From positions 669,706 through 733,705 of the forward strand of contig JAJLTO010000008.1 of assembly GCA_030568195.1 (NCBI GenBank): a stretch of DNA of 64,000 nucleotides, in the 5' to 3' direction. Shown piece after piece: positions 1,814-46,575 of this stretch; position 1 is the first letter of the stretch; the number at the start of each line of letters is the position of its first letter. The position numbers and the translations under genes are program-made. The notes below the pieces were generated by a model that saw only the letters and a program-made list of their open reading frames with translations, was not told the origin of the DNA and made no database searches. This DNA is from Dipodascopsis uninucleata var. uninucleata. Lineage: Eukaryota; Ascomycota; Lipomycetes; Lipomycetales; Lipomycetaceae.

Positions 1814-3933
1814 TTTTGCTGCTGACTGATTTGACAGTTTCGCAGAACCAGTGGTACTCTTGGAGGCACTGTCAGACACTGTCAAGTCCGTATTATTCAG
1901 AAGGAGTGGTCAGCAGCAACAGGCAGCGAGGATAGATAGCTTGTGCCGCAGGACTGGAGCTGAGAGAGGAAGTTTGTAAAGACGCTGGTAAGAAGTTGAG
2001 ACGCCGAGTATAGAAGCTGATTGTGTTGCGACTCTCCCGGTGGACGTGGTAGCTATACCTTGTGCACAGCAGATTCGCGAGAAGAGAGCTGCAGAGAGTC
2101 AATTCTTTCTACTAGTTCCGTCCTATGGGCGAAGAGCAGCGTAGCCGGTAGAACAGCAGCGTGTTTGCAGAGATAAAACAGAAATACGACCGAGAAAATT
2201 TAAGTGGTCGACTCGAGTTAAAAAAAAAAGAAAAATCAGAATTAGACTGAGATGGAAAAAAACAACAAGCGATTAGCGCCAAGTAGAGTGCTGTTACGCA
2301 TATACTAGGTAAAGTTTAAGATAAGAGACTGGCGAACAGATGTATAAGCGGTGGAGTAAATCTCACGTTTTCTCTTGGTTGGGACGGTGAAAACCGCGTG
2401 TATATCTACAGAAAGACCTGTTCACCTCTTGTGTTGAAAACCAACTAGGCGCGAGATGCCCAGCGGCAGGCGGCCAGCCTTTATATATGTGTGCGGGTCC
2501 AGGGAAGAATGCTGTCGAAATCGCAAACTGAATTTCACCGCATCTCACACTTTCCCTAACAGTATGCATTGTTCCACAGATTGATTAATCATTCTACGCT
2601 AGTTTAAGCTTTTGATTAAGTCTTTGTCTCGGATTAGTAATAAGCTGTTCCTAATCGCTTGCCAAATAGACAGCTTGGGACATTATATAAGCTCCGGAAC
2701 TTCAGAACCCCGGCAACGTACGTCCTGATGGCCGGCCAGGTTGGCGGACGATGCAGCAAGGATCTGACCATGGCGGCAGTGTTTGTACTGGCGGATTACA
2801 GATGTGGCTAGCTGGAAGGAATGGCGGGAATGGAGCGCGGAAATGTGTGCGGAAGCACCACCACGATAGGAAAGTAATCCTGAGAGCGACAGCGATAGCA
2901 CGATCAGAATGGGAGGTGCAGCTGATTCCGCGCTGCTGATCGTGCTGCGTATCTAAGTGCTCTAGGCCATGGTCACAAGCGCAGTAAGGTGTAAAGGAGG
3001 GGAAATTGCGAGCTGGAGAATACGTGATAGAAGCTGTGTCAGAGAGAGCATCTGCATGTCTACATTGGGAAGCAAATATCAGCTTACATATCTATACTGC
3101 AGATATATAAGCAGTTAGGGCTGCCATGCTTAGCTTGCAGAGTTCGGACATATTGAAGTAAAACGGACTACGCGAACCTTCATTCGACCTGTGGGCTAGA
3201 TATAGTGCGATATGTGGCAAGCCTTCAAGCCCTCAACCGCCCTACATGGCGAAAGCCCTAGAATGCCGAATACCCGTGCCCTGCCGTAGTAGTGCCACTG
3301 CTGTGAGAGTTTTGGCACTTGCGTTTCCTCCATACAGGGCGCTACGACGAGCAGCGCCCTCGTATCTGGGCTGTGTGCTGGGCTGTGTGCTCGTATGCGT
3401 GCTCGTATGCGTGGCCCATTGCAGGGCATAGACCTAGATAGCGGAATGTGCCCAGATGTGCCGGCGCAATACGAGCTCATATTTCAGCACGCATGGCTAG
3501 GATGACATAATGCATTACGTGTGACAGCGCGCTGCGTGCTCGTATCGCTGTGATAGCTAGCCGGAGTGAGCGGAGTTTATTTGGTTCTGAGATGTCCAGG
3601 ACACCTCTTGAGAGCATTTTAGTTCTCTATTTCAGGTTCTCTACGCGTGGAAAGCTTCACGTATCTAGCCTGTCGGAGTCTACCCCGTGTCAGGCAATAC
3701 TGAGGTACCAATTATAGTTGGAACTATTCATTCAGTCACACTGCACTTACAAACATGTCGTACTAGAGCTTGCGGGCCTAAATACTAGACAACCGCGCTA
3801 CGTCAGAATACAGGTCGTCAACGCCGAATGTGCGCAGCGCAGTCAGATGAAACGTGTAGATATATTAATAATCAGTTTTCTGTAATACTAAGCAGGGCTC
3901 TGGCTCCGCGGCGACAAGCAGGAGCACATGCGC
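1814..3933. promoter_or_regulatory. 2.1-kb gene-free stretch: ABC transporter 5' region
   Basis: I see no gene here. The part next to 1813 is the promoter and leader of the ABC transporter, which is read leftward. On that strand there is a poly(T) tract (about 2221-2232) and a TATA-like element near 2480-2488. The middle (about 2.4-3.5 kb) is richer in G+C than most of the window and carries short tandem repeats, for example GGGCTGTGTGCT twice and CGTATGCGTG twice at about 3367-3412. Open frames across this part are short and have no recognisable protein features. Confidence 0.4.
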
Positions 3934-5088
3934 CTACCACTCTCTGATGCCACCGTCGGGGCCGAAAAACACGCCGGACCGCCAAGATGCTGCACCTTGC
4001 GAGAGCTCGCGCACTCTTGCTTCGTCTACTTGGATGCCTAGCCCAGGCCCATCGTGCACGCTGACATGGCCGTCATGCACGTCGAAGACAGAAGAGTCTG
4101 CTACGTAGGTGTTGATGTCGTAGCCGCCAGCTTCAATGTTGTAGTGGATGCCCAGCGACATCTCCTGTATCGTGTGGTTAGGAGTGCAGGCTGCGATCTG
4201 CAGGCACGCTGCCAGCGCGATAGGTCCTAGCGGGCAGTGGGGGGCGATTGCAACGTCATAGGCTTCGCACATCGTCGCGATCTTCTTGAGTTCGGATATG
4301 CCGCCTACATGTGCAATGTCGGGTTGCAGGATGTCCACGATCGTCGCTGGACTGAGAAACTTCTTCACGTCCCAGCGACTGTACAGGCGTTCGCCCAGCG
4401 CGATTGGCGCAGTGGTCAGTCCTGCGAGCTCTGCTATGCCCTCATAGTTCTCTGACAGCAGCGGCTCTTCGATGAACATTGGTCGAAGCGGCTCAAGCAG
4501 CTTAGCCAGCTGCTTGGCCATCGGCTTGTGGATTCGACCGTGGAAGTCCACGCCGACGTCCATCCCCAGTGCCTTGACGGTACGCACGCGGTCCGCTGCG
4601 GAGTCGAGGATGCTAGGGCTGTCCAGCCAGTTTACGTCTGCAGTAGCGTTCATTTTAACCGCCGAGAAGCCCTGTTCCTTTCGCGCAAGCGCCTGCAGCT
4701 GGACGTCGTCTGGACGATCTCCTCCTATCCATGCGTAGACCTTGACCTTATTGCGTACTTTTCCTCCTAGCAGCTCATATATCGGTAAATTCATCCTTCG
4801 AGCCTTCAAGTCCCACAGTGCGATGTCCAGGCCCGAGAGCGCTGATTGCATGACAGGGCCACCACGGTAGAAGGAATGGCGCCAGACGGCCTGCCAGATG
4901 TTCTCTATATCGTTTGCCTCGACACCTGTGAACCGAGCTTTGAATGCTTCTAGCATTCCTTCGACTGCCTCGCTGTTGCCTTCCAGTGATGCCTCGCCCC
5001 AGCCAGTCTCGCCCTCTTGATCCGTTATTTTGACAAATATCCAGCGGGGCGGCACACGAAAATACTCGATACTTTTGATCTTAGGCAT
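3934..5088 (-). CDS. dgoD: D-galactonate dehydratase-like enolase-superfamily enzyme, paralogue 1
   Basis: 384 residues, the usual length of bacterial DgoD (about 382), with no intron. It should dehydrate a six-carbon aldonate (D-galactonate in the characterised family) to a 2-keto-3-deoxy acid. Landmarks of the mandelate racemase/GalD group are all present: capping-domain RVPPRW at 11-16 and GWGEASLEG at 29-37; the SFYRGG block at 72-77; the D181-F-H183 pair; metal ligands E207 (FIEEPLL) and E233 (LGERLYSR); catalytic H284 in APHCPLGP; and E309. It is divergent from the aldolase gene at 6104 across a 1-kb promoter. Its codons are clearly richer in G/C third positions than those of the paralogue at 7393-8781, so it may have a different history. 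L-rhamnonate, L-fuconate or another aldonate remain possible substrates. Confidence 0.9.
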   Translation of the reverse strand: MPKIKSIEYFRVPPRWIFVKITDQEGETGWGEASLEGNSEAVEGMLEAFKARFTGVEANDIENIWQAVWRHSFYRGGPVMQSALSGLDIALWDLKARRMNLPIYELLGGKVRNKVKVYAWIGGDRPDDVQLQALARKEQGFSAVKMNATADVNWLDSPSILDSAADRVRTVKALGMDVGVDFHGRIHKPMAKQLAKLLEPLRPMFIEEPLLSENYEGIAELAGLTTAPIALGERLYSRWDVKKFLSPATIVDILQPDIAHVGGISELKKIATMCEAYDVAIAPHCPLGPIALAACLQIAACTPNHTIQEMSLGIHYNIEAGGYDINTYVADSSVFDVHDGHVSVHDGPGLGIQVDEARVRELSQGAASWRSGVFFGPDGGIREW

Positions 5089-6103
5089 TGTTGGCTGTTT
5101 CTACTCTTTAATAGCGACAACTGGCTACACCTATGCGTAGATGCTTAGCGTAATATTCTTGGCCTATATATTTACGTCTATGTATATATATATATATATA
5201 TATACTTTTCGCCGATATGATTTGACTATCCGGTGTACAGTGTATATAGTGTGAAAGCGATGTCTACATACATATGTTGCGTACGTATGTACATATATAT
5301 ATATATATACGCATACAGAGCATATACAGGAATATAGGCGCCTTGCTGCCTACTTACAGGCTTTTCTGTGGAGTCATATAGCTATGGGCTCCTGCATTCT
5401 CGGAGAATGACACGAGAGTCCCGGAGACCATGGCGAGTTTGCCAACAAAGATAATGAGAAACCCGCACAACGAATAGTTTCCTTGGCTACGGGATTTTTT
5501 GATCTCAACTCTCACCAGAACAGCAGCTCTTGTACCTCAGCCCATTCAGCTATTTTCTGCGAGTTTACCCCGCCCCGCTCATATCAAATATATTTCATGT
5601 CAAAATACAGTACTACGGCTACGTTGCCCTGAAGCACGGATAAAGTTCAACGCAAGTGTCTCCGAAACATAATGTTAAGCCGCACGCGGATAAGTATCCG
5701 CAAATCCCCTAATTGGTTTTACAATTTGTACATTTTTGAGCTACAGTCGCCCAGACGTTCGGCAGAGATAGTCACCACAATTTGACGACCAATGTTTCTG
5801 ATTCAATTACAGAATATCACTGTATCCCACAAAACAAAAACAAACGGGAGATAACTGCAGGATAATGGCGATAGCTGCGTGTAGTAGAGAAAATTATATG
5901 GGGATGCTTCCCCGCATCCATGACTCTGTAGGCTGTGTTGCCAGCAGTATATAGAGCTACTATTTAACAGTAAGATACCTGAAAAGGAGAAGAAGAAAGA
6001 GCGAATCATCGCTTTGTGAAGAAATATAGAAGTTGTAGACGACAAGAAATAAGTGTCTGGAGAAGTATTTAAGACCTCAAGAATATAGTCTGCTATCTAC
6101 ACC
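5089..6103. promoter_or_regulatory. Divergent promoter between dehydratase 1 and aldolase, with TA microsatellites
   Basis: One kilobase lies between the ATGs of the two divergent sugar-acid genes. It holds (TA)n tracts at 5183-5204 and 5293-5309, a CGG-N8-CCG inverted repeat at 5686-5701 (listed separately), and TATA-like sequence close to each gene (for example TATTTAAG near 6066 before the aldolase). The arrangement suits co-regulation of the two enzymes by a Zn2Cys6 activator. No gene is seen. Confidence 0.5.
5686..5701. promoter_or_regulatory. Perfect inverted repeat with CGG-N8-CCG core
   Basis: GCGGATAAGTATCCGC is a 7-bp perfect inverted repeat around a 2-bp centre. Terminal CGG/CCG triplets in inverted orientation are the classic half-sites of dimeric Zn2Cys6 regulators, and one such regulator is encoded at 13022-15588. 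It lies about 600 bp before the dehydratase start and 400 bp before the aldolase start. Its role as an operator is inference. Confidence 0.4.
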
Positions 6104-7081
6104 ATGACTGGATCAAGACCTCCTCCATCTGGAATCTACGTCCCGGCACCAACATTCTTTGTTGGAAAGCAGGCTTCCACATATTCAATTTACAACCCTC
6201 CGCTTGATTGCGAAACACAGCTTCAGCACACTCTTTTTCTCGCAAAAAATGGTATTCGTGGAGTAGTGCTGCTTGGATCAACCGGTGAAGCAGTCCATTT
6301 GTCTAATGACGAGCGCTCGCAAGTCCTCTCTTTCGTCCGCAAGGGCTTGGACGACGCTGGCTATACACAGTTTCCAATCATCGCAGGGACTGCTGCAAAT
6401 TCTGCAGTAGAGACAGTACAGCAGCTTGAGGATGCCAAAGCCTGCGGCAGTGAGTATGGTATGGTGCTCGCTCCATCTTACTTTGCGTCTGCAGTTACTC
6501 AACAGGGCCTTATTGAATGGTATACAGAAGTAGCTAATAGATCACCCATCCCTATCTTGATTTACTACTATCCTGGTGTATCAAATGACATTGTGATCAA
6601 GATCTCGACTTTCGAGCAGCTTGCTAAGCATCCTAACATTGTTGGCTGCAAGCTGTCACATGGTAACATCTCTCACCATATACTCTTGGCACAATCGCCT
6701 GTGATCTTGGAAAATAATTTCTCTGTCTTTAGCGGAATGAGCCGCCAACTACTTCCTGTAGTCGCTATTGGAGGAGCTGGTGCGATCGATGGCTTGGCAG
6801 GTATATTTCCCAAGTCAATAGTGCATTTGTTTAACCTGTCGCAGGCAGGAAAGATTGCTGAGGCTCGCAAAGTTCAGTATGCTGCCTCACGTGCAGAGGA
6901 GGCTTTTGCTAGCCTCGGAATTATTGGTGTCAAGGAAGCTGCCAGTAGGTTCCTTGGCTTGGGAGAACGTGATGGGGGACGTATTCCTCTGCGTGGAGGA
7001 CTCGAAGGCGGAGAAGCTGTCTGGCAGGAAAAATATGAGCCTTTATTCAAGGACATTGCCGCCCTCGAGGCTACTTTGTAA
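6104..7081 (+). CDS. 2-keto-3-deoxyhexonate aldolase-like protein (DHDPS/NAL family, fungal LGA1/GaaC type)
   Basis: 325 residues, a single-domain (beta/alpha)8 class I aldolase. The Schiff-base lysine is K183 in GCKLSHG, the active-site tyrosine sits in IYYYPG (about Y154), and GSTGE at 58-62 is the carboxylate-binding loop. The wording around these motifs (PPPSGIYVPAPTFFV at the start, GIRGVVLLGSTGEAVHL, PILIYYYPG, GAIDGLAG) is that of fungal L-threo-3-deoxy-hexulosonate aldolase, the last enzyme of D-galacturonate breakdown. By family it would split a 2-keto-3-deoxy acid into pyruvate plus glyceraldehyde in the cytosol. Placed between two galactonate-dehydratase-like genes, its likely substrate is 2-keto-3-deoxygalactonate or the gluconate epimer. 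It is divergent from dehydratase 1 and convergent with dehydratase 2. ATG 6104 is the first in frame and fits the family N-terminus. Confidence 0.88.
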   Translation: MTGSRPPPSGIYVPAPTFFVGKQASTYSIYNPPLDCETQLQHTLFLAKNGIRGVVLLGSTGEAVHLSNDERSQVLSFVRKGLDDAGYTQFPIIAGTAANSAVETVQQLEDAKACGSEYGMVLAPSYFASAVTQQGLIEWYTEVANRSPIPILIYYYPGVSNDIVIKISTFEQLAKHPNIVGCKLSHGNISHHILLAQSPVILENNFSVFSGMSRQLLPVVAIGGAGAIDGLAGIFPKSIVHLFNLSQAGKIAEARKVQYAASRAEEAFASLGIIGVKEAASRFLGLGERDGGRIPLRGGLEGGEAVWQEKYEPLFKDIAALEATL

Positions 7082-7392
7082 ACAATATCGTACTACTGTT
7101 CTAGGTTACTTATGTATTCCATAGTTTAATAATAAATAAAGCGCCTACTTTAGAATCGATAACAATAGTACACTATATTTTACGTATCTTAACCTTACTA
7201 GAAAAAGAAGTATATCACAGTAAATATTAACACGAAAGGATCTTAAATGACAATCACATGTATTAACAGCTATCATTTTATAATAATCAAATGTCTACAA
7301 AAGAAAAAGCATTATACAGATACCTCACAACAAAAAGTGCAAAACTGAACCATATAACAAAAAGAATAACGAACATGCTGCATCAAGACCTT

Positions 7393-8781
7393 TTACCATT
7401 CACGAATACCTCCATCAGGTCCACGCCAGACAGGATTACGCCATGAAAAGTCCTTGAATTCCTCAGCAGCCTTGCGGACGAGATCTTCGTTAATTTCGAT
7501 ACCAAGACCTGGACCACCAAGGGCATTGACAAAACCACGCTCGACAGCAAAGACCTCAGGGTTGGTCATGTAGGTGAAGAGATCATAATCAGAAGCAGCA
7601 TTATAGTGCATCTTCCATGACATTTCACAAATAACAAAGTTAGGAGTAGAAATGGCGATCTGCAAAGAGGCAGCGAAGGCTATAGGACCAAGAGGACAAT
7701 GTGGAGCGACACCAATATCATAAGTCTCAGCCATTGATGCAATACGTTTGGTCTCAGAAATACCACCAGAGTGAGAAATATCTGGTTGGATAATGTCGAT
7801 GCAGCCAGACTCAAAGTATGGCCTGCACATCTGACGTGTGTAAAGACGCTCACCAAGAGCCACTGGGATAGTGGTCTGCTCATACAATTTTTTGAGCTCA
7901 TCGACATGGCCGGGAAGAAGAGGTTCCTCGATGAAAAGAGGAGAGTATGGCTCCAAGGCACGGGCAAGTTGCTTGGCCATAGTCTTGTGAAGACGACCGT
8001 GGAAATCAAGACCAACATCAATACCAATTGAACGAACGTCTTTGATACGCTCGACAGTTGCCTTAAGGTCATCTGGAGAGGCTAACCACGCCAAAGACTC
8101 GACAGCATTCATCTTAACAGCCGTGAAACCCTGGTCTTTTCTGTCCTGGGCTTGTTTAAGAACGTCCTTAGGTCTGTCGCCGCCAATCCAACCGTAGACT
8201 GCAACCTTGTCACGTACCTTACCACCTAGAAGTTGCCAAACTGGAACACCGAGGGTCTTACCCTTTATGTCCCACAAGGCAATATCAAAACCAGCAATGG
8301 CCGACATCAGTACCTCGCCTCCGCGGTAGAATCTGTGTCTGTACGCAGACTGATCTGTGAGATGAGTTAGCAATCGATGTGCTAGCATTCTAGACCCTTG
8401 CGTTTCGGCCGTCGCGCCACAGACGGCTTAAACATAACGCCTCCCCCTGAACTTATCCCGCACGCAAACTGCAATGACGCATGCCATTAGCAGCACCAAG
8501 CAAAGAAAAGATCAGTTAGCTTACTTACAGATATCCTCGATGTTTGCAGCCTCCCAACCGATAAATCGCTCTTTGAAGTCTTCGAAAGCACCTTCAACAG
8601 CCTCAGAATGACCCTCAAGGGTGGCCTCACCCCATCCGACAATTCCATTTTCAGTCTCAACGCGGACAAACAACCATCTGGGAGGCACGCGGAAAGTCTC
8701 AATGCTCTTTATTTTGTCTGATGAAGCCGCAGTGACGGCTGGAAGGCCTTTGCGCTCGTCAGTTTCAAGTGGAGAAGGCAT
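7393..8781 (-). CDS. dgoD: D-galactonate dehydratase-like enzyme, paralogue 2, one intron
   Basis: Two exons, complement(7393..8354,8529..8781), encode 404 residues. The intron 8355-8528 has donor GTAAGT, branch site TGCTAAC and acceptor CACAG. Splicing joins IEDI to YQSAYRHRFYRGG, exactly the block seen in paralogue 1 and bacterial DgoD. Catalytic and metal residues are present: D201/H203, E227, E253, and H303 in APHCPLGP. Compared with paralogue 1 it has about 20 extra N-terminal residues with no clear targeting signal, an intron, and codon use like the neighbouring genes. The C-termini of both paralogues end GPDGGIREW. It is convergent with the aldolase and divergent from the KduD-like gene. 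It may act on the same aldonate as paralogue 1 or on an epimer; the sequence does not decide this. Confidence 0.9.
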
Positions 8782-9610
8782 GTTGTATGAACTATATGTA
8801 CTGCAGAGCTAGACTTTGTTAAATTCAGATCCGCAACAGCCTAAAAACAACCAAATCACTCTCAAATATATGCGTATATACATATGTGTAGAATCTGCAT
8901 GCGCACAGCTACAATATATATGTCTATATCATAAGATCATGAAGGCGATTGAATCTTGTACTTACCTGGGGAACTTTTTTAGTCTGTCTGATCGGCCACG
9001 AAAAGATGAATAACTGAAGATGTAGGGACACTACCTATATAAATAGGTGGTTTGGGCGACAACATGTTTTGAACGGGAAATATAACAGCAGAATTGGGAT
9101 AGTTGATCAACCCGCAAGCCTAGTAAGAAGACTTTCTTGAGCTACCATACACTCTACCTTCTTAGTAGTGCTCCCCAAAATTTCTTGCATATACAAGCAT
9201 TATGAGAACTCTATATTCAGCGTAGTCTGCAGCTGCTAGTCCGATATTGCACTAGTGTCAGCCGAATGTCAAAATTCAAGTGTGGCGTTACCCGGACTAA
9301 TCTCATTTAACTGTGGGATTATCCCGCGCGATCGTTTTTCTTCCTTTTCAGGCATTTAGTGCGTGGCAATCTCGGTTACCATCGATAGCCGGAACAGTTG
9401 TGCGACCACGAAAGAATGCACTCCCACGCGTCGACGCGCCCACACGGCACATTGCAACCCTTTTGTAAGCCCATGATAGACCTTAATGGCTATTTTCTAT
9501 ATCTGGTAAGGGTATACCCCACGCTCTTATTTTCGGTTCAATTGACAATATTTTTTTGTATGCACAATTCTGCAGCTAAAAAGGAGTGCAGTAGAGTTTA
9601 GTGTGTTAGT

Positions 9611-9626
9611 GTGTCACAAGTGACAC
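9611..9626. promoter_or_regulatory. 16-bp near-perfect palindrome upstream of the KduD-like gene
   Basis: GTGTCACAAGTGACAC has 7-bp arms with a 2-bp centre, and sits about 320 bp before ATG 9942. It is not a CGG/CCG type, so a bZIP-like or other dimeric factor would be a candidate. Function is not shown. Confidence 0.35.
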
Positions 9627-9658
9627 AGGCTACTAGAACAATCGGGAAATCTGGCTAT

Positions 9659-9749
9659 CCATCCGAGAAGAGAAGGTCAGTTTCCGCGTCATTATTCCAC
9701 GTATATATGCTATAGCTTAGGACTTTTTCGAAAAGTAGTGCTCGGATGG
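9659..9749. promoter_or_regulatory. Spaced 9-bp inverted repeat CCATCCGAG / CTCGGATGG
   Basis: The arms at 9659-9667 and 9741-9749 are exact reverse complements, 73 bp apart. Each contains a CGG/CCG half-site in the same ATCCGAG context. They sit 190-285 bp before the KduD-like gene, a usual distance for an upstream activating sequence. The role is inferred. Confidence 0.35.
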
Positions 9750-9941
9750 TCTAAGGTAATAATTGTTAGGATTGACAGTTTTTTGACTGGCGAACAATAA
9801 GCGATTACTAAAGATTCTGTAAGCCTGCAGAAAGCGATCGCAGGTAAAAATAAATTAGATATTCTGATTATTTAGTGATTGATCTCTAGCGGAGGAAAAA
9901 AAGAACCGATATCATACAAAAAAAGGAGAGAAAAAATAAAA

Positions 9942-10827
9942 ATGGGCGTATCAGAAAATCTCTTGAAGATGTTCTCTTTGGAGGGCAAGACTGCACTGGT
10001 AACGTATGTACCTGAATAAGATCTTCAGATAGATATAGTGACTGGTCAAGTAATAGTAAATCGCTGACAAAATATTTTATAATAGTGGAGGTACGCGTGG
10101 TATTGGTGCGGCCATAGCTATCAGTTTCGCAGAGGCGGGTGCCAACGTTATCTTACTACAGCGAGATACATCGAAGACAGATACGAGGGATAAAATCAAT
10201 TCTCTTGACACAGGTGCTAAGGCAACTATTGTACAGTGTGATCTCTCCGATGCAGCACAGGTGAAGGGCATTGTTTCCCACATCACCAATGATCTTGGAA
10301 TGATAATTGATATTCTTGTCAATTGTGGAGGTATTCAGCGACGCCATCCCGCAGAGATTTTTCCAGATTCCGACTGGGATGAGGTGCTCCAGGTCAATCT
10401 GAACACTTGCTTTACCCTTGCTCGTGATTGTGGAAAGCATATGCTCGAATCTTATGAGAAGGATCCCTCGTATAACCGTAAGATCATTAATATTGCGTCT
10501 CTAGTCTCTTACCAGGGTGGTGTCACTGTACCAGCTTACACTGCTGCCAAGCATGGTATCCTTGGCGTGACCAAGGCATTGTCCAACGAGTGGATCTCCA
10601 AGGGTATCAATGTTAACGCTGTCGCTCCGGGATACATTGCAACTGAGATGAATACTGCTTTAATTAATAATCCAACTCGATCTCGTCAGATTATGGAGCG
10701 CATTCCAGCAGGTCGCTGGGGTACGCCTGATGATTTTAAGGGAGCCCTTGTGTTTCTTGCATCTCCCGGCTCCAACTACGTTTCTGGAGAATGTATTGTT
10801 GTTGACGGCGGATGGATGGGACGATAA
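9942..10827 (+). CDS. kduD: KduD-like short-chain dehydrogenase (2-dehydro-3-deoxy-gluconate 5-dehydrogenase family), one intron
   Basis: Exons 9942..10003 and 10086..10827 give 267 residues. The 82-nt intron has donor GTATGT, branch-like GCTGAC and acceptor AATAG, and it splits the Rossmann motif TGGTRGIG (21-28). The classical SDR catalytic set S159, Y172, K176 is present. Sequence blocks [37 protein letters not shown] and VDGGWMGR match bacterial KduD and 2-deoxy-D-gluconate 3-dehydrogenase closely. The usual NNAG is NCGG (100-103), an unusual variant. KduD interconverts 3-deoxy-hexo-2,5-diulosonate and 2-keto-3-deoxygluconate with NAD(P)H, which would feed the aldolase at 6104. It could instead oxidise another keto-deoxy acid or an aldose. 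It lies divergent from dehydratase 2 and next to the regulator at 13022. Confidence 0.85.
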
Positions 10828-11087: not shown

Positions 11088-11623
11088 TCATAGCTTGATA
11101 ATCTGAGAAAGAGAGAGTCTGACTGCAACTCTCTTATCTCCAGCTGCAGCAAAGATTTTATCTACGATTTCTAACAGGATCCTTGCGCGGTTCTCAATAG
11201 ATCCACCGTACTCATCTTCTCTGATTCGAAACATCTTGCAAGAATTGGTCCAAGAGAAAACCATTGGCCGCGTGTATTTCAACACCGTCGAAGCCAGCTT
11301 CCTGAGAATCAAGAGCCGTAGTGACAAAATTTCTTCAATCTTCTTTATTTCCTCAATAGTCAGAGCATGCGGAACGTCCTGATCTTCGCATGGAATTGCA
11401 CTAGCTGCAAGCCTTTCTACTGGATTAGCACTATGGTTTACTCGTCCTAGGCCAACAATTTGAGTAAAGATAAAGCTCTTTTTATCATGCGCTGTGTTGG
11501 TTACCTTTTTCCATTCTATAACTTGCTTGTCTGTAAAGGGACCTAGGGCGTTGTCGCGTCCTGGATTCTTGTCGAGACTTCAAGATCTCCTACTTTAATT
11601 CGAGTAAATAGAGGATCTGCCAT
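11088..11623 (-). pseudogene. Old Yellow Enzyme (NADPH:flavin oxidoreductase) relic
   Basis: Starting at an ATG at 11623, the reverse strand shows MADPLFTRIKVGDLEVS (OYE N-terminus), then IFTQIVGLGRVNH (usually QLWHLGRV), PHALTIEEIKKIEE, AGFDGVEIHAANGFLLDQFL and finally DEYGGSIENRARILLEIVD. These are the ordered core motifs of the FMN barrel. They do not lie in one frame: about 40 residues are missing after the first block, one shift occurs before the GFDGVEIHAANG block and another before DEYGGS, and the reading stops at 11088 well short of the usual ~380-400 residues. It is therefore a decayed, truncated gene. It does not appear to be explained by introns, because donor and acceptor signals are lacking at the breaks. 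Confidence 0.82.
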
Positions 11624-13021
11624 TGTGAGATACTAAATAATTCTATATAATAAGAGCTAATATACAGAAAAACAGTAGAATGATCAATAGTCCAATTGCT
11701 AATCTGTTTATGTCTCTCTAAACAAATAACGGAATTATCAGGACCTTAAATATGCTATTTTATGCATATGAAATGAAACTAGGTGCTCAAAGGCACAAGA
11801 TTTTCTAAATCAACGACGTAGTGGTATACTTTGTAATACATCTGCTTGGAAGTGCTCATAGAAAACTTAGATGAGCTTACCAACCTCAGCTAAATCGGTA
11901 CGCTCCGTAATAATCCAATTCATGATCTAATAAGATTAATTTGGCCGATATATTGGTATCTGCACCGAGAGGAAACGGAGTTTCTCTTAAATAGTTATAA
12001 TTTTAACACCGACAACCAGCTTCACGAATTATTAGTAAATGTATTGTTCACTGAGTTAATAGCCCTAACTGCTGGCCGATTGTTTGTTTGCCCTAAGTGG
12101 TATGTAAACCGGCTTTATGAACGATCCGCGTATGCACAAAACCCGCACATACAAGTACATATTTTTATAGGCCCGGCTCGTAAACATCCCAGAGAGCTCT
12201 CCTCTTCAGCGATCTCTGCCGACATTCGCGGTCGTATATTTTACTGAATAGATATACTGCCATGTGAATGCAGATTTGCCGTTTCTATGATAGCTGTAGT
12301 ATCGTTTTGTATTATTGGTAGATCATATAGCTAATTAGAATATCGATTCCTGCTTAACGAGAGCGAAAGAAATAGTTAGAATCAAGCTTCAGTTAAAGCC
12401 TTAGAGCTAGGAGAATCGTCATTTTTTCCTCACCAATTACTTTCGTCAAAGACGTACACAGAGGCAGTAAATAGATTTCTACTTTTACCGGCATCATTAG
12501 TAACATACAATAGACTTCAAACCATTATAAGCTACGAATGATAGTGAAATGGCTAATAGCACTATGTACTGTCTGTGGGTAGTGGGACTGACCAGAGAGC
12601 GGAAATCCTACTGACATATAAGTGCGGTGATATTTATGTAATGATATTTATGTAATATGGACTACAAACTTAGTCATCAGTGCCCCGCCTTTTTTCTGTG
12701 GCAGGTAGTGAGTGCGTTAAATGGAACTACTTCGCTAACCCATTTAAACATCACCTTATTGCAGTTCCGTGCACACGAAATCCTGGACAACATCCAATGA
12801 TATATACTCTTTAGATACAAAGCATCGTGATATAGAGGCATTAAGCTTAATTAGGTTGGAATTTACTCCAGTTTCAAAACCTTTCGAACTTAGATGAACA
12901 GGCGTTTAGAGGTGGAGACCCCAGACTCCGGTAATTGACTCAAGTAGCCGGGTTGCCGCATTCTTAATTTTTGTTTTTTTAATAAAATACAAAAAGAAAT
13001 CAATTCGAGACCCTGCGGAGA
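11624..13021. other. 1.4-kb intergenic stretch before the Zn2Cys6 regulator
   Basis: No gene is seen. Short open frames (for example about 12044-12247) show no family features. The last 150 bp before 13022 contain a CCGG...CCGG pair (about 12930-12953) and a poly(T)/poly(A) stretch at about 12964-12996 immediately upstream of the regulator's ATG, compatible with its promoter and leader. Confidence 0.4.
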
Positions 13022-15588
13022 ATGGATATCAGTCTTATTACTGCTGCTAGCGAACGAGCAAGTCAGCAAAATGCAGATACCGTGCAGTTGGTGGATGTCG
13101 ACAATTCTAGCGACGTGGACTCGCAGGTCATGGAGAGCTCAAATCACAGCATGCAAAGCATGCGAGACGCCCTATTGCCGAAAGGAAGAACTGACAAGTC
13201 CAAAAGAAAGCGCGCCTACAAAGCCTGTCTGAACTGCAGAAAGCGCAAGGTATGATTGCCGTTAATTACATCACTCTAAGGCTATTGGTCTTGTACTAAT
13301 AATATATTTTCGTGTTACAGGCAAAATGTATCTTCCCTCCTGATATGGCCTTCATCCCACCATGTATCCGCTGTCAGCGAGAAGGCTGCGAGTGTAGATT
13401 TGTTCCTTCTCGTAGAGGAGGGCGCAGAGTGAAGAAGTCATCTACAGAAGAGGCTCGTGACCCTAGGGAGCCAGCACAAATAGAGTCCAATAACCCAGAA
13501 AACGAGAATAACTTAACGGCAAGTGATTCCAGACTGGCAGATAAAGAAGCGAATGTCAACAACGGCGACCAATTTGAATATCATGAGAATATTCATGGTC
13601 ACCAGACACAAGAAAAGAAGATAGATGCACACGAAAGCACCCAAGTAGATACGGAAACTCTTGCATTCTCCATGATGAGAAATCCTTCCGACGCGATAAG
13701 CCTTTTAACTCAGGCATCGCTGTATTCGAGCAAAAAGAATGGTTATTACACCCAAGACGACGAAGATGACGAGGAAGAGTCCAGTGCACACTCGGATGAC
13801 GACTCAGCAGAAAAATCTGTAATGGGAGACGGCTTAGACGATGCGCAGATAAGATCAAGAGCCCGACTTTCTGTGTATCCATCAAAAAAGCTGAAAAGGA
13901 CACCTCTGGAGAAAATAGCTGCTTTCCCGCTTATAAAGAAGGGTTATATAAATCCTACTCAACTGAGAACTTATGTGTCGATATACTTTACAAGACACAA
14001 TCATTATCTACCTCTTATGCCATTGGCTCACATTCCCAAGAATGACGAGATGCTGAGTGATTTCGCAGAGCGAGAACCATTTCTTCTTATAGCGATGATA
14101 ATTGTTGCGTCTCGCTTCGAAAATTGCGCTGTTCATGAAGCATGTTGGAAATACATGCAAACGATAATCAGCGATTTAATGTTTGGAACTGAGCCCACTG
14201 TCGGTGCTGTAGAAGCGTTGATGCTTCTCTCTGAAAATATCCCTAGATTTCCGCATGTCGAGCAATCACAAATACACTATTACGAAGAACGGACGATGTG
14301 GAATTTAATAGGTCTTGCAATCAGAATAAGCTACTATCTGGGTCTCGATCAAAAGGGTCTAGGAACTTTAGATAGTAGTTCACACTATAATAGGCATCGT
14401 GAGAGACTTGTGTGGACTCACTGTTATATACTGGACAGGCAGGCTTCCATTCGTGTTGGGAAAGCCTTCTGGAGTAGAGGACCAAGTCTTTGCTTCCAAA
14501 ATCCTTCTCGCGGTGCATCGGCTTTAAATTTCCCTACGTTAGTTCCTAAAAATATTGGCGATGAGGACTATGCGTCATTCATGCAAGCTCAGATAGAATT
14601 GACCCAGATTCTCACTAATATCCATGATACATTGTATCCTAGTCGCGACCGGACACTTCAACTAGTACAAGGTGGCGAATATCCTAGGATTTTGGATGAA
14701 TATTCACTCACGTTTGCTTCACACAAGATGGCTTGGCAGCAAGTGACATGGAAAACTTTTCCACTTAATGAAATTGTATGGCTATCATATCATTATGCCT
14801 GCCTGTATGCTTATGGATTTTCGTTTCAATCTCATTTACGACGTTGCACCGCCAAATATAAAGAAATGCAGCAAATGCCATCAGAAGACAGAATGTCCCT
14901 AGCCGAGATAGTGTTTCCGCGAGGAATGGCTGGGTCTCCTGACGCACGTTATATTATTGAATTCAAGAAAGCTGCTATGGATTTACTTACAATATGTGTT
15001 GACCAGCTACATGCAGGTGGTGCGCTGGCGTATCTGCCAGCTCGATTCTATGGCTACATATCATACGCGATTATGTGTCTTATCAAAGTGGTCTTCACAG
15101 GAGCTGTACTTCCAAATGAGCAGAATGTCATTCTGAGTTTGATCAACCGTGTCACTACCGCAATTTTTTCTCTGGAGGCAAGTGTCGACAATCAGAATCC
15201 ACTCCTCAGACGTATTTCACAATTGAAGTTTTTGATAAAGACTCTCTGGAATGCTGAAGGAGGAATTATTACTTCACAGAGACAATTAGATACCACTAAT
15301 ATTAATATTATTAGTGAGCCGAAGACAGATTCTCGAACTGTTAATGTTTCAAGCAGTAAAGTCGATCCACATGACTTAGCAGCCAGTGCCTGGCAGGCTA
15401 ATAATTCTCTTCAATCTAATGGATTTAATACCGAGATCCAGGAAGTATTTCCTTTTACTGATATTGAAACTGGCAACAGTGACTTGGCTGATGCCGGTTT
15501 AGCATCTATGTTATCGTTTGATCTTGACTCTGAGATTTGGCTGTCGTATTTCTACAATCAAGACTCCTATCCCATGGTTGGAGAATAA
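13022..15588 (+). CDS. Zn2Cys6 fungal transcription factor, 831 residues, one intron
   Basis: Exons 13022..13249 and 13321..15588. The 71-nt intron (donor GTATGA, branch TACTAAT, acceptor TTACAG) falls inside the zinc cluster, a common position in this family. Splicing gives CLNCRKRKAKC followed by CIRCQREGCEC, the six-cysteine binuclear zinc DNA-binding domain at about residues 69-106, preceded by a basic stretch (KSKRKR). After an acidic low-complexity linker (DDEDDEEESS and similar, about 200-225) comes the fungal-specific middle homology domain (about 270-560), including HYLPLMPLAHIP and YYLGLDQKG. The C-terminus is acidic and aromatic, as in activation domains. It is tandem after the KduD-like gene and the nearest regulator to the sugar-acid module, so it is the prime candidate for its control (inference). 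CGG/CCG inverted repeats at 5686 and 9659/9741 are possible targets. Confidence 0.93.
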
Positions 15589-15835: not shown

Positions 15836-18800
15836 TTAAACAAACACCGATTTCTTCAGAACTTTAACTACAGCGTTTGCTAAAGAATGTAGATCTGATG
15901 AGACATCAAGAGGAATGATATCATCCTCATATAAATCTGGTGGATCTGCAATTGACAGTGTCGGTGACTCGCAGATGAGAATTGCTAACTTCCCTCCGAA
16001 TTGGCTAACGCTATCACGGTATAACTTTCGCTGACTCTTAGCTACAGGAACATCATACAGAACAGCCGTTGATGAAGACTTGACAATGCTGTTGATATGC
16101 GCAATTGCGTTATCGAAAGAATTTTCTGCAGAAACAGACGGAATGCCATTTCCAAGAATCAATGCAATATTTTGGCCAAGGTCCGATGACTCTTTATGAA
16201 TTCCAGTGCCAATCAAAATAATATTTGCTGATTTCTTTGCTGTTTTATTCCACGAATTTTCCAGCCAGTAATTTATAAACCGCTTGATAAGATCGGCCGA
16301 TATCATAGGTCTGTTGGCAAGCGAAAGAGATTTCTTAACAGTATTTTCAGTTTCATAGTTCATACCAGATGGTTCTCGAGGTGTCTCTTTATCATATTTG
16401 GAAGCAAAAAATTCAAGTAACTTGAATGGGGGATTGAGGACTGGATGCGTGTTTGATGTTCTAAGACGTTGAATCCACTCTTGCTGAGGCAAGACATCAA
16501 ATGTCAAGTTCGCTTCTTTCATCATCGGAATCAAGTCGCGAGACCAGTGGAATGTCGTTGGATTAACAACATTAAACACCTGATCACGCCTAACGTCTTT
16601 GTCTTCATCTGAGAGAAGCGTCAAGTCCACTACAGTATGCGCAACAATATCTACTGGAAGCCACCTGCAGTTTTCATTAAGCTCAGGTACAGCACCTATA
16701 GTAACCGCAGACTGAAAGATCAGCGAAATTGCTTCTGTGGCATTCCATACTCCATAAACAGTGTCACCACATATTTGACCAACCCGAAGAACTCTTGCAA
16801 TTGCGCCATAGTTTCTAGATGCTAGCGAACATAGATTTTCAGTCACAATCTTTGATCTAGCATAGCCCATATTTTGGGCATGAGTAAAGTCGCTGTCAAT
16901 TTCTTCTCTTGCGTAGCTATTAGGAGAAAACGTCACAGCAGACACAGACGACACAAAAAAGAAAGCTGCTGGGATTGAGCGCCGCGAGTCTAAGCACAAT
17001 TGAATTAGATTATGGGCCCCTTTGATATTGTCCTCAAATGACTGAAACGACATATTGAAGTTGACGGACCATGCTGGGTGGATAACTTTGGTTATACACT
17101 TGAGAATATCTTCATGCATTGCCGGAGAAAGACCAAGGTCTGGCTTGCTAAGGTCTGAAGGAATCGAAACGATCTTTTGACGATCAGTCAAGCTCATGCT
17201 ATGGTAAATTTTTCTTTCAATAAGAGATGATACAACGCGGACTTCCGCATCTGCTGTAGATGCAGCACGTACCAAAGCATATACCTTTTTGACAGCGGGA
17301 AGCCTAACTAAAACAGACAGTATATGCGCCCCAAGTGAACCAGTGGCACCGGTTACGAGTATGTACTCTCCTGAAAGACTAGAGTCCACTGGTTGGTGTG
17401 GTTCAAATCTAGAGTATTTCTCGAGAGTTGCTTTCATCGAGTCATATACGCTCACGTCTCCCTCAGCGCCCGCGCTTCTCATGGTGAATAGCTTATGTGC
17501 TAGTTGATTGATGTTTGGATTCTCAAAGACGATATTAAATCCAACTTTACCAGAACCAGTATTTATAGACTTAATGATTTGTGTACGAACATTAGTCGAT
17601 TGAAGAGAGTCCATTCCAAAGCTGAAGAAGTCGGTATCGTACATAAGAATATCTGGATCTTCAATACCAAGTGTTCTCACAATCAACTCATGCAGATATG
17701 GCTTGAGTTCCTCTTCCGTCAACGAAAGGCCATTCTCTCCCGCACTTTCGTCGGTAGACTTGTAAAGTTCCTCGATCTCTGAACTCAACTGACGAGAAAA
17801 GGCCGCGCGAATAATGGTGCCCTTATCAGTTCTGGGATATTCTGTAGTCGGAGGAAGAACATGAATCATATCTTTACTAATACGTGCAAAATCATCTTGT
17901 TGCGTGTTAGCCCTTTCCACCTCAGGCCAAATTGTGTTGATTATATCACTGCTAGAGAGACCTTCAGTAGCCTCAGATGCAACTACAAGCATGGCTAACT
18001 GTGGTTTGCCAGCACCCACTACCATAACTTCCTTTACAAAGGAATGTCTTCTGATAGCGTGCTCCATTGGAATTGGATTAGCCTTTTCACCGTTAACGAG
18101 AACAATTGTATCGTCAATACGTGCGAAATATTTCCATAAGCCAGGCCTTGTTGGATGAGGTGTAAATGTGTCTTTTGTAGCATATGATCCATCTGGCCTA
18201 TTAGATGCTACCTTAGAGGGCCAACCCTCTTTAATGACGACTTCATATAAACCAGAACTTCCTACTTTCTCAAAAAGGATGTGAGGCTCCAATTTTTTAG
18301 GAACCCGCAAGTAATTCCAGTCGAAATCAGTCTTCGAGTCACGCAGAGACATCATTAGTTGACCTGTCTCAGTCGATCCATAATGGGAAACCAAATTGAC
18401 ACCTCGACGAACAAGTATATCACCAAGCTCATCAGGACAAGAGGAGCCACCAAAAGTAACCATTTTAAGCTTCTGAAGAATATTAATACCTTCTTCTGTC
18501 TCACAGAGGAGTTTCAACGCGTACGGCACTCCATAGAAGACTTCGAACTGGTGCTCTGACATAATCTTAATGATATTTGGACTTGTCAAAGGAAGATTTG
18601 CAGAATACATATAAAGCTCTTTGCAGCATGATACTCCACGGAAAAAACTAGCAATACCATGAGAGTGGAACAGTGGAAGAGTAATAAATCCCCGCATATT
18701 CATATTATTGGTGTAGTTCTGAAGAGAGGCCCTCTGAGTCTGAGGAATTGATTTCGGCACTCCTGTTGAACCAGAAGAGTGAATGATCCAACATACTCGA

Positions 18801-19348
18801 GAATTCTCAATTGTATGATCAATATGATGATCCAGACGTGTATCAGAAACCTTAGATGCCTCAAGGATTCTCTCCGAATCGCGAAAATAGGTCTGAGAAA
18901 CGATTTCTGTCGCTCTCATATTAGGCATGGATTTCTTGAGCTTGTTAACCATTGGCTCAAATGACGGGTGGAAAAATATCATTTTCACATTGTTATTCTT
19001 TAATAACGACAAGTAGGCTGCCTCTGATATTCTAGTCGATAGATACAATATAGAATGATCTAGCTTTGTAAGAGCCAGTATTGAAATCAGATAGTCGAGG
19101 TTAGATGGTCCCAGAAGAGCGACTGTAACATTTGGATGCTCAGTTTTTTCTCTTACAGGCAAGATCTCATTGTACTGCCTTGCCGCAATGTAGGCAAACG
19201 TGTCAAGTTCTTTGAAAGTGAACTCCTCGTAGTCCATGTCATGCTTTGGATAGGCAAAAATAACTTTGTCCGGTAAACGATTAGCACGATCTCTCATGAG
19301 TTCGTCTATCGTGAGATGATTCTCGTCAATACTATTATCGAAAGTCAT
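15836..19348 (-). CDS. Adenylate-forming reductase (A-T-R, NRPS-like) with C-terminal extension
   Basis: 1,170 residues from ATG 19348 (an upstream in-frame TTG at 19426 is not a likely start). The adenylation domain holds SSGSTGVPKS at 191-200, HYGSTETGQ at 322-330 and a C-terminal YFARIDDTIVLVNGEK block. The thiolation domain has FFSFGMDSL with the phosphopantetheine serine S581. The NAD(P)-binding thioester reductase begins TGATGSLG (666-673) and has the YxxxK pair Y829/K833. Such enzymes activate a carboxylic acid with ATP, tether it and release it as aldehyde or alcohol. Lys2 shares the layout, but this protein is shorter and has the fungal aryl/keto acid-reductase type, so the substrate is unknown. 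About 130 extra residues (1037-1170) follow the reductase, unlike the usual ending. No tailoring cluster is evident, though a mutarotase-like gene lies just upstream. Confidence 0.9.
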   Translation of the reverse strand: MTFDNSIDENHLTIDELMRDRANRLPDKVIFAYPKHDMDYEEFTFKELDTFAYIAARQYNEILPVREKTEHPNVTVALLGPSNLDYLISILALTKLDHSILYLSTRISEAAYLSLLKNNNVKMIFFHPSFEPMVNKLKKSMPNMRATEIVSQTYFRDSERILEASKVSDTRLDHHIDHTIENSRVCWIIHSSGSTGVPKSIPQTQRASLQNYTNNMNMRGFITLPLFHSHGIASFFRGVSCCKELYMYSANLPLTSPNIIKIMSEHQFEVFYGVPYALKLLCETEEGINILQKLKMVTFGGSSCPDELGDILVRRGVNLVSHYGSTETGQLMMSLRDSKTDFDWNYLRVPKKLEPHILFEKVGSSGLYEVVIKEGWPSKVASNRPDGSYATKDTFTPHPTRPGLWKYFARIDDTIVLVNGEKANPIPMEHAIRRHSFVKEVMVVGAGKPQLAMLVVASEATEGLSSSDIINTIWPEVERANTQQDDFARISKDMIHVLPPTTEYPRTDKGTIIRAAFSRQLSSEIEELYKSTDESAGENGLSLTEEELKPYLHELIVRTLGIEDPDILMYDTDFFSFGMDSLQSTNVRTQIIKSINTGSGKVGFNIVFENPNINQLAHKLFTMRSAGAEGDVSVYDSMKATLEKYSRFEPHQPVDSSLSGEYILVTGATGSLGAHILSVLVRLPAVKKVYALVRAASTADAEVRVVSSLIERKIYHSMSLTDRQKIVSIPSDLSKPDLGLSPAMHEDILKCITKVIHPAWSVNFNMSFQSFEDNIKGAHNLIQLCLDSRRSIPAAFFFVSSVSAVTFSPNSYAREEIDSDFTHAQNMGYARSKIVTENLCSLASRNYGAIARVLRVGQICGDTVYGVWNATEAISLIFQSAVTIGAVPELNENCRWLPVDIVAHTVVDLTLLSDEDKDVRRDQVFNVVNPTTFHWSRDLIPMMKEANLTFDVLPQQEWIQRLRTSNTHPVLNPPFKLLEFFASKYDKETPREPSGMNYETENTVKKSLSLANRPMISADLIKRFINYWLENSWNKTAKKSANIILIGTGIHKESSDLGQNIALILGNGIPSVSAENSFDNAIAHINSIVKSSSTAVLYDVPVAKSQRKLYRDSVSQFGGKLAILICESPTLSIADPPDLYEDDIIPLDVSSDLHSLANAVVKVLKKSVFV

Positions 19349-20380: not shown

Positions 20381-20752
20381 TTATGCATCGAACCTGAATA
20401 CTTCTTCCAAGTTGTACCACCATCCTTTGGGATCAGTACTTCCGGTACTACCTTCAACGAGAGTCTCTTGCATGCTGTCGGTCAATTTCCACCATCGTCG
20501 GGTTGGTTCATTCAATGACCCTTTTTTGGAATCAGTTTCCCAGTCGTTCCCAATATACTTGAAAGTTGCGATTAGAAGCGAGTGAATTGGATCATAATGG
20601 ATTGAATAGTCGACAATATTTTGATCTTTAAGGCTCTCGAGGACTTCGGGCCAAACATTCTTGTGAATATCCTTATACTCCTGAAGAGCTTCTGACTTGA
20701 CCTTGATGATCTGGCATATACGCTTTCCTGGATAATTTGATGTTGTTGACAT
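20381..20752 (-). CDS. rhaM: L-rhamnose mutarotase-family protein (RhaM/YiiL, COG3254)
   Basis: 123 residues, slightly longer than bacterial RhaM (about 104). The dimeric alpha/beta-barrel family interconverts the alpha and beta anomers of L-rhamnose, and some relatives act on L-fucose. Seen here: EYKDIHKNVWPEV (catalytic-type Y26 and H30, then WPE), DYSIHYD at 49-54, the paired tryptophans RRWWKLTD (W87, W88) and the C-terminal LEEVFRFD. A small insertion around 95-112 accounts for the extra length. ATG 20752 gives an N-terminus without targeting signal, so it is probably cytosolic. Presence next to sugar-acid genes suggests use of L-rhamnose or L-fucose, but no rhamnonate-specific lactonase is nearby. 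It is read in the same direction as the A-T-R gene, which may be coincidental. Confidence 0.88.
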   Translation of the reverse strand: MSTTSNYPGKRICQIIKVKSEALQEYKDIHKNVWPEVLESLKDQNIVDYSIHYDPIHSLLIATFKYIGNDWETDSKKGSLNEPTRRWWKLTDSMQETLVEGSTGSTDPKGWWYNLEEVFRFDA

Positions 20753-46122: not shown

Positions 46123-46575
46123 ATGAGCTCTTTATTGAATGGTCTTAATATTCTCTCAACCGCTCTAGCGGGATTTATTCCGTCCGCAATACTTGGATTA
46201 TCTGCGATGGCGATTCCTGCGATTTTGATCCTTCCCCAGCCAGAACAGTCCAAGGCATTTTCTGAAATCTACCGCCGTGGATCTATCATTATGCCATCAT
46301 TATCTGCAGTCACTGCTACTCTACTCGTCACTGTGCACTATGCCATACCATTGGAGAATCGTGCTGGGAGTCTTCGTTTATACACTGCCGCTAGCATGCT
46401 TGCCATCGTTCCATTCACAGCAATCTTCATGTTGAAAGTTGTCGACAAATCGAAAGCTGGAAATGAAGGATCGACGCGAGCAATCAGGCAATGGTCCGTT
46501 CTTAACGTTATCCGCGCACTTTTCCCGCTGACGGGATTCTTGTTGCATTTGATTCACTTCAAAGCACGCTTATAA
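46123..46575 (+). CDS. DUF1772 membrane protein (anthrone-oxygenase-like)
   Basis: 150 residues with four hydrophobic segments (about 10-35, 55-75, 82-105 and 128-146). The arrangement (small integral membrane protein, PFTAIFMLKVV, a linker with W, then LNVIRALFP) is the DUF1772 pattern. Members include cofactor-free anthrone oxygenases of aromatic polyketide pathways, but most are uncharacterised. No polyketide synthase is in the window, so the substrate is unknown. It is divergent from the four-exon Zn2Cys6 regulator, which probably controls it. Confidence 0.85.
   Translation: MSSLLNGLNILSTALAGFIPSAILGLSAMAIPAILILPQPEQSKAFSEIYRRGSIIMPSLSAVTATLLVTVHYAIPLENRAGSLRLYTAASMLAIVPFTAIFMLKVVDKSKAGNEGSTRAIRQWSVLNVIRALFPLTGFLLHLIHFKARL

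What the first reader, a model, noticed from the sequence alone, without database searches (positions are those of the whole stretch)
3934..10827. Compact aldonate-catabolism module: two DgoD-like dehydratases, a keto-deoxy-acid aldolase and a KduD-like SDR in a yeast
Seen: four enzymes, all intact in active-site residues, in divergent and convergent order with shared promoters. Known: DgoD makes 2-keto-3-deoxygalactonate; LGA1-type aldolases cleave 2-keto-3-deoxyhexonates to pyruvate and glyceraldehyde. Inference: this is a non-phosphorylative De Ley-Doudoroff-type route, in contrast to the Leloir pathway used by most yeasts. With the GH35 pair, hexose transporter and Zn2Cys6 regulator in the same 50 kb, it may be a complete galactoside-use island apart from the sugar dehydrogenase and lactonase.
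Basis: partly seen in the sequence, partly recalled or inferred. Interest (0 to 1): 0.8.

Follow-up and report, generated by a model that had tools for sequence, protein, structure and literature searches.

The report
Yeast gene cluster for galactonate breakdown
Four neighbouring genes in a fungal genome look like a short route that turns a galactose-derived acid into pyruvate without phosphorylating it, and one of them is a testable candidate for a fungal enzyme whose gene is not firmly assigned.

Summary
Two galactonate-dehydratase (DgoD) genes, one DHDPS-family aldolase gene and one KduD-like SDR gene lie in the order D1(-) ALD(+) D2(-) SDR(+), with two divergent promoter regions and the catalytic residues kept. 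D1 and D2 score 503 and 520 bits against NCBIfam's galactonate dehydratase model (cut-off 311), so that name passes; "KduD" does not (297 of 339 bits). No DgoK or DgoA homologue was seen in the window, so the best reading is a non-phosphorylative D-galactonate route: D-galactonate to D-KDGal to pyruvate plus D-glyceraldehyde. In the bacterial loci closest to D1/D2, a LacZ-type beta-galactosidase lies within 3.5 kb of dgoD in 3 of 8. The "galactoside island" is weak: the GH35 pair lies 37 kb away behind unrelated genes. An unreported L-fucose/rhamnose-mutarotase-type gene (20.4-20.75 kb) keeps a deoxysugar rival alive. The SDR's step is not settled. The pathway itself is known in Aspergillus. 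The useful part is a physically linked candidate D-KDGal aldolase; one 2022 paper calls that fungal gene elusive, another used an A. niger gene under that name. The host genome and other fungal genomes could not be searched.

The parts
3934..5088 (-). D1: galactonate-dehydratase (DgoD) family, intronless, GC3 0.655 (20 other ORFs measured in the window: 0.335-0.445)
   Evidence: NF010624 503 bits vs cut-off 311; catalytic residues; GC3
5089..6103 (.). shared divergent promoter region of D1 and ALD; contains GCGGATAAGTATCCGC (5686-5701), a CGG-N8-CCG palindrome of the kind Zn2Cys6 proteins bind (recalled)
   Evidence: no CGG/CCG pair of the kinds scanned in the D2/SDR region
6104..7081 (+). ALD: DHDPS-family class I aldolase, candidate 2-keto-3-deoxy-D-galactonate aldolase
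   Evidence: PF00701 116 bits; dapA equivalog not met (127 of 206 bits); Lys183, Tyr154
7393..8354 (-). D2 exon 2: galactonate-dehydratase family
   Evidence: spliced protein NF010624 520 bits vs cut-off 311
8529..8781 (-). D2 exon 1
   Evidence: splice model
8782..9941 (.). shared divergent promoter region of D2 and SDR
9942..10003 (+). SDR exon 1
   Evidence: splice model
10086..10827 (+). SDR exon 2: KduD-like short-chain dehydrogenase
   Evidence: TIGR01832 297 bits, below cut-off 339; S159/Y172/K176/N125
13022..15588 (+). nearest Zn2Cys6 / Fungal_trans regulator (exons 13022-13249 and 13321-15588); link to the module is proximity only
   Evidence: PF04082 33 bits; Zn2Cys6 motif read by eye in the translation
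   Evidence: PF05336 98 bits; best PDB match L-fucose mutarotase 7byw, 64 bits

Best explanation
The four genes form a fungal non-phosphorylative D-galactonate (De Ley-Doudoroff-type) catabolic cluster. D1 and/or D2 dehydrate D-galactonate to 2-keto-3-deoxy-D-galactonate. ALD forms a Schiff base through Lys183 and cleaves it to pyruvate and D-glyceraldehyde. The KduD-like SDR performs a redox step on a neighbouring intermediate: either it makes the aldonate from the sugar, or it is a hexonate C5 dehydrogenase feeding the same pool. Shown: gene models, families, catalytic residues, linkage, no DgoK/DgoA-like match in the window. Inferred: substrate, direction, co-regulation and the SDR step.
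For: Both dehydratases pass the curated galactonate dehydratase model with wide margins; the other 12 (D1) and 13 (D2) NCBIfam models listed, among them gluconate/galactonate, mannonate, arabinonate, talarate/galactarate and rhamnonate dehydratases, are all below their cut-offs. E. coli DgoD is 45-47% identical with all seven catalytic residues kept. A fungal D-galactonate dehydratase works in vivo: the A. niger gene made an engineered M. thermophila accumulate KDGal (PMC8113861, section 20 read). A. terreus is reported to cleave D-KDGal without phosphorylation (PMC11219438, passages). In the bacterial subclade that groups with D1/D2 (100/100), a LacZ-type beta-galactosidase lies within 3.5 kb of dgoD in 3 of 8 loci, which come from two closely related groups. 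KduD-like SDRs without a KduI neighbour had an enolase-superfamily dehydratase nearby in 3 of 6 Bacillota loci, one of them a true DgoD, against 0 of 14 with KduI. Of 1695 bacterial ORFs from 110 loci (108 with dgoD), which included all 49 DgoA-like and 18 DgoK-like ORFs found, matches in the window fell only on D1, D2, ALD, SDR, two other SDRs, the sugar porter and the ABC transporter.
Against: No activity data. Fungal DGD-type genes are often multi-copy (seven in P. subrubescens, eight in T. reesei; PMC9781776, passages), so single copies may have other substrates. ALD has no close characterised relative found: its best solved match is an unassigned DHDPS-family protein (3qfe, 155 bits; fungal, recalled), and the 15 plasmid matches listed of 640 are at 31% identity or less. 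No regulatory motif is shared by the two promoter regions beyond TA-rich repeats and one 11-mer. None of the 30 window ORFs put to Pfam is a lactonase or a recognised sugar dehydrogenase other than SDRs of unknown substrate; one search listed 60 ORFs and spliced genes could be missed. ALD-like genes were near only 2 of 110 bacterial loci. The mutarotase gene points to 6-deoxysugars. Expressing an A. niger KDGal aldolase without a kinase abolished growth on galactose in M. thermophila, perhaps by glyceraldehyde toxicity, so a kinase-free route needs a way to handle glyceraldehyde (PMC8113861, section 20). Conservation of the cluster in other fungi is untested.
Confidence: 0.6

Rival explanations
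1. The module serves a deoxyhexose or pentose acid (L- or D-fuconate, L-rhamnonate, arabinonate) rather than D-galactonate; the mutarotase-family gene and an SDR sugar dehydrogenase belong to it, and ALD makes pyruvate plus lactaldehyde or glycolaldehyde.
For: Gene 20381-20752 matches L-fucose mutarotase best (7byw 63.9 bits against 37.5 for the best L-rhamnose mutarotase). In fungi LGD1/LGA1 are proposed to be shared between L-galactonate and L-fuconate, with LGA1 reported more active on the L-fuconate product (PMC12370193, passages).
Against: D1/D2 are DgoD-type, and the L-rhamnonate (109 and 121 of 393 bits) and arabinonate (129 and 126 of 650 bits) models are not met. The mutarotase lies 9.6 kb from the SDR, behind a regulator and an NRPS-like reductase.
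Confidence: 0.17
2. A hexonate/uronate route: the SDR is a C5 dehydrogenase (KduD- or gluconate-5-dehydrogenase-like) that epimerises or recycles a hexonate, and D1 and D2 handle two different hexonates that converge on one aldolase.
For: KduD is the best family, gluconate 5-dehydrogenase next. Two loci, one of an unnamed Bacillota genome (L136) and one of a Clostridia MAG (L081), join a KduD-like SDR, an alcohol-dehydrogenase-like ORF, transporter-like ORFs and a true DgoD (dehydrogenase and transporters named by eye). In L163 a KduD, a second SDR and a D2-type DgoD are adjacent. Two paralogs only 57-58% identical are kept side by side.
Against: No KduI or second dehydrogenase recognised in the module; KduD cut-off not met.
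Confidence: 0.15
3. The linkage is partly accidental: ALD is an LGA1-type L-KDGal aldolase or a 4-hydroxy-2-oxoglutarate aldolase, and the SDR belongs to something else.
For: HOGA is among ALD's best solved matches (93 bits); SDRs are common (two more in this window).
Against: ALD lies between two DgoD genes and shares a divergent promoter region with one of them.
Confidence: 0.08

Closest known systems
Fungal D-galactonate pathway (Aspergillus terreus biochemistry; A. niger D-galactonate dehydratase)
   Same: D-galactonate dehydratase, then non-phosphorylative aldolase cleavage to pyruvate and D-glyceraldehyde (PMC11219438, passages)
   Different: Known from enzyme assays and single genes. 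The aldolase gene is called elusive in PMC9781776 (passages), though PMC8113861 (section 20) expressed an A. niger gene as KDG aldolase, AnKdg. Here a candidate aldolase is linked to two dehydratases; its relation to AnKdg could not be tested
Bacterial De Ley-Doudoroff operon dgoRKADT (E. coli)
   Same: DgoD family dehydratase, 45-47% identical
   Different: E. coli phosphorylates KDGal (DgoK) and uses DgoA; neither is seen here; a DHDPS-family aldolase takes that place
Fungal D-galacturonate pathway GaaA-D / LGD1-LGA1
   Same: dehydratase plus aldolase logic
   Different: L-series substrates; LGA1 acts only on the L enantiomer of KDGal (PMC11219438, passages). That LGA1 is a DHDPS-family protein, and that LGD1 is a different dehydratase subgroup, is recalled
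Yeast and fungal L-rhamnose cluster LRA1-4
   Same: clustered non-phosphorylative route in yeasts (PMC5674754, abstract start only); enolase-superfamily dehydratase recalled
   Different: L-rhamnonate dehydratase model not met; LRA4 aldolase of another family (recalled)
Alternative yeast galactose pathway of Harrison et al. 2024
   Same: galactose use without GAL genes
   Different: Paper not read; seen only as cited in PMC12715865 (passage); recalled to run through galactitol, not galactonate

Membership tests
D-galactonate dehydratase (DgoD, NF010624) | curated whole-protein score cut-off 311 bits | tested here: met
   D1 503.4, D2 520.1
D-galactonate dehydratase (DgoD, NF010624) | metal ligands and His general base/acid (D183, H185, E209, E235, D258, H285, E310 of E. 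coli; roles recalled) | tested here: met
D-galactonate dehydratase (DgoD, NF010624) | activity on D-galactonate | not testable with these tools
   no assay
Bacterial phosphorylative De Ley-Doudoroff pathway | KDGal kinase and KDPGal aldolase | tested here: not met
   in the window only: no match to 49 DgoA-like and 18 DgoK-like bacterial ORFs; rest of the genome not held
Fungal non-phosphorylative D-galactonate pathway | dehydratase plus class I aldolase acting on D-KDGal | tested here: inconclusive
   genes and Lys/Tyr present; stereospecificity unknown
4-hydroxy-tetrahydrodipicolinate synthase (dapA, TIGR00674) | cut-off 206 bits and the Arg after the YxxPG motif (Arg role recalled) | tested here: not met
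   127.3 bits; residues after PG are V-S, not R
KduD (TIGR01832) | cut-off 338.85 bits | tested here: not met
   296.9 bits; 42% identity to E. coli KduD
L-rhamnonate dehydratase / LRA3 | NF011968 cut-off 393 bits | tested here: not met
   108.7 and 121.4 bits
LGA1/GaaC L-KDGal aldolase | orthology to LGA1 and activity on L-KDGal | not testable with these tools
   no LGA1 sequence reached
L-rhamnose/L-fucose mutarotase (gene at 20381-20752) | PF05336 cut-off 23.4 bits; TIGR02625 cut-off 99.6 bits | tested here: inconclusive
   PF05336 98.1 met; TIGR02625 41.9 not met

The most novel reading that the evidence does not exclude
ALD is a genuine fungal 2-keto-3-deoxy-D-galactonate aldolase (EC 4.1.2.51), and this fungus uses a complete, clustered, phosphate-free galactose-to-pyruvate route, with D1 acquired or re-acquired from a GC-richer source and D2 the resident paralog.
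Probability: 0.3. Interest if true: 0.57.

Novelty: new member of a known kind. Interest (0 to 1): 0.4.

Why it matters
The fungal D-galactonate route is known from enzyme work, but PMC9781776 (passages) calls the enzymes of the aldolase step elusive across the six fungi it compared; PMC8113861 (section 20) used an A. niger gene as KDG aldolase, so the assignment is not settled. A DHDPS-family gene lying between two D-galactonate dehydratase genes is a concrete, cheap-to-test candidate, and a D-specific KDGal aldolase would also be useful for enzymatic synthesis.

Tried and rejected
Viral contigs gave no relative of the dehydratases (one of 8 scans used). The first Pseudomonadota sample (398 genomes, 40 with a match at E 1e-100 or better) held no member of the D1/D2 subclade (best 53% identity). 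Members turned up after sampling the class of a genome picked by a GcrA family search, taken to be Alphaproteobacteria: 4 of 385 genomes at E 1e-120 or better, 2 of them at 60% identity, then 6 of 82 in the order of one of these (the two included). GcrA as a marker of that class is recalled, and the control also rang in Sulfolobus.

HGT of D1 was considered: GC3 is 0.655 against 0.335-0.445 for 20 other ORFs measured, and the 3' flank (2401-3933) is 0.485-0.52 GC against 0.28-0.46 in the other non-coding stretches measured. But D1 and D2 are equally close to the bacterial subclade (62-63% to Asticcacaulis), and the trees do not settle whether they are sisters (92/50; 43% of bootstraps and AU p 0.466). 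The GC anomaly is unexplained.

A shared regulatory site in the two divergent promoter regions was sought and not found. The AlphaFold model of ALD, folded alone, was useless (mean pLDDT 37) and no fold search was made. The ABC transporter's GC3 and its row were computed one base out of frame; one search gives the right value (0.427). The wrong row was also in the pooled reference, whose per-codon figures are therefore not relied on. In one search, 20 of the 27 KduD-like places were used; 7 were dropped (further copies in genomes already used, and the places of G486, G630 and G654), and three of the 20 stretches (L136, L142, L145) were shorter than the rest. The 3-of-6 against 0-of-14 contrast was noticed after the fact (one-sided exact p 0.018).

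Literature searches for a yeast or Saccharomycotina D-galactonate cluster listed none in their titles and abstract starts; the library lacks most subscription papers. Harrison et al. 2024 and Motter et al. 2014 were not read.

Other mends were counts and wording.
Full report
Observation. The four genes are real. Six-frame reading plus two canonical introns gives D1 3934-5088(-), ALD 6104-7081(+), D2 8781-8529 and 8354-7393(-), SDR 9942-10003 and 10086-10827(+). Pfam assigns MR_MLE_N/C to both dehydratases, DHDPS to ALD and adh_short_C2 to SDR. NCBIfam's galactonate dehydratase equivalog (cut-off 311 bits) is passed by D1 (503) and D2 (520); the other 12 and 13 models listed for them are below their cut-offs. 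The seven catalytic positions of E. coli DgoD are identical in D1 and D2 (roles recalled). In D1, 14 of 18 CTG codons fall on columns of Leu or other hydrophobic residues, several of them all Leu, so CTG is read as Leu there; D2 has only one CTG.

Closest relatives. D1 and D2 are 57-58% identical. Each is 62-63% identical to a DgoD on an Asticcacaulis plasmid and 60% to one of Niveispirillum, against 45-47% to E. coli DgoD. In two trees D1 and D2 fall with these bacterial proteins (100/100) apart from the E. coli type; whether D1 and D2 are sisters is not resolved. The subclade is rare in the samples: no match above 53% identity in 398 Pseudomonadota genomes, 2 of 385 genomes of a class taken to be Alphaproteobacteria at 60%, 6 of 82 genomes in one order. 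No fungal genome collection was available, so the fungal side of the tree is only these two proteins.

Context as a guide to substrate. In 8 loci of the bacterial subclade (L082-L084, L160-L164), a LacZ-type beta-galactosidase lies within 3.5 kb of dgoD in 3 (L083, L160, L162; two related groups, not three independent cases), an SDR directly follows dgoD in 2 (L082, L163), and dgoK/dgoA are present in 1 (L084). L164 holds only 7.2 kb. L083's enzyme scores best against LacZ-type beta-galactosidase (905 bits, below the 999 cut-off). Glycerol kinase is annotated beside dgoD in L083 and seen by eye in L160 and L164, which would suit a glyceraldehyde product, but this is speculation. In the wider set of 110 loci (108 with a DgoD above 200 bits), DgoA-like genes were near 49, DgoK-like near 18 and DgoT-like near 28 (many loci are short, so these are lower bounds), whereas ALD-like genes were near 2. 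In the window no match to the DgoA- or DgoK-like ORFs was found; ALD stands in their place.

Aldolase. ALD keeps the Schiff-base Lys183 and Tyr154 and lacks the Arg that follows the YxxPG motif in DHDPS (roles recalled). It fails the dapA model (127 of 206 bits). Its best solved relative is an unassigned DHDPS-family protein, 3qfe. Of the two KDGal enantiomers LGA1 is reported to act exclusively on L-KDGal (PMC11219438, passages), while DgoD enzymes yield D-KDGal; if ALD serves D1/D2 it must have the opposite stereospecificity. [quoted passage not shown] Against a plain 'missing gene' reading, PMC8113861 expressed an A. niger gene, AnKdg, as KDG aldolase in M. thermophila: alone it abolished growth on galactose, and with a bacterial KDG kinase galactose use rose by 57% (section 20 read). 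Whether ALD is related to AnKdg could not be tested.

SDR. It is KduD-like (297 bits) but below the KduD cut-off (339), 42% identical to E. coli KduD. Among 20 Bacillota loci of its relatives, 14 have KduI nearby and none of these an enolase-superfamily dehydratase; of the 6 without KduI, 3 have one, in L136 a true DgoD (546 bits to E. coli DgoD). L081 and L163 also place a KduD-like SDR near a DgoD. This supports a working link between this SDR type and sugar-acid dehydratases but does not tell which step it performs.

Surroundings. The nearest regulator is a Zn2Cys6/Fungal_trans protein at 13022-15588. Between it and SDR lies a broken old-yellow-enzyme remnant. Further on come an AMP-binding/thioester-reductase protein, a mutarotase-family gene at 20381-20752, an M28 peptidase, a sugar porter at 29793-31379, an FAD monooxygenase, more regulators, a Diels-Alderase-like protein, an anthrone-oxygenase-like protein and the GH35 pair at 47754-51493. 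This is not the layout of a single galactoside locus. The two divergent promoter regions share no convincing site; a CGG-N8-CCG palindrome occurs only in the D1/ALD one.

Known background. A. niger D-galactonate dehydratase has been used in engineering (PMC8113861, section 20). A. terreus splits D-KDGal without phosphorylation (PMC11219438, passages). D-galactonate is among the growth tests used for yeasts (PMC4381509, methods passage). Fungal L-fucose use is proposed to share LGD1/LGA1 with the galacturonate path (PMC12370193, passages). Yeast-forming lineages are said to have lost most fucose-related genes (PMC10481521, passages).

Verdict. A real, coherent sugar-acid module, most likely for D-galactonate without phosphorylation (confidence 0.6). 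The pathway kind is known; the linked aldolase candidate and the clustered, duplicated dehydratases are the useful part. The complete-island claim is not supported by distance or gene content.

Noticed in passing
   Followed up: partly
window 2401-5088: D1 and its 3' flank are GC-rich (GC3 0.655; flank 0.485-0.52) against GC3 0.335-0.445 in 20 other ORFs and 0.28-0.46 in other non-coding stretches measured; origin unexplained
   Followed up: partly
window 11088-11640 (-): broken remnant of an old-yellow-enzyme (Oxidored_FMN) gene split over reading frames
   Followed up: no
window 15836-46575: secondary-metabolism-like genes in a fungus taken for a yeast: AMP-binding/PP/thioester-reductase protein (15836-19348), FAD monooxygenase (32591-33841), Diels-Alderase-like protein (40259-41377), anthrone-oxygenase-like protein (46123-46575), several regulators
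   Followed up: no
L163 (G1112): DgoD of the D1/D2 type directly beside an SDR and a divergent KduD
   Followed up: partly
L083, L160, L164: glycerol kinase gene next to the D1/D2-type dgoD (L160 and L164 by eye)
   Followed up: no
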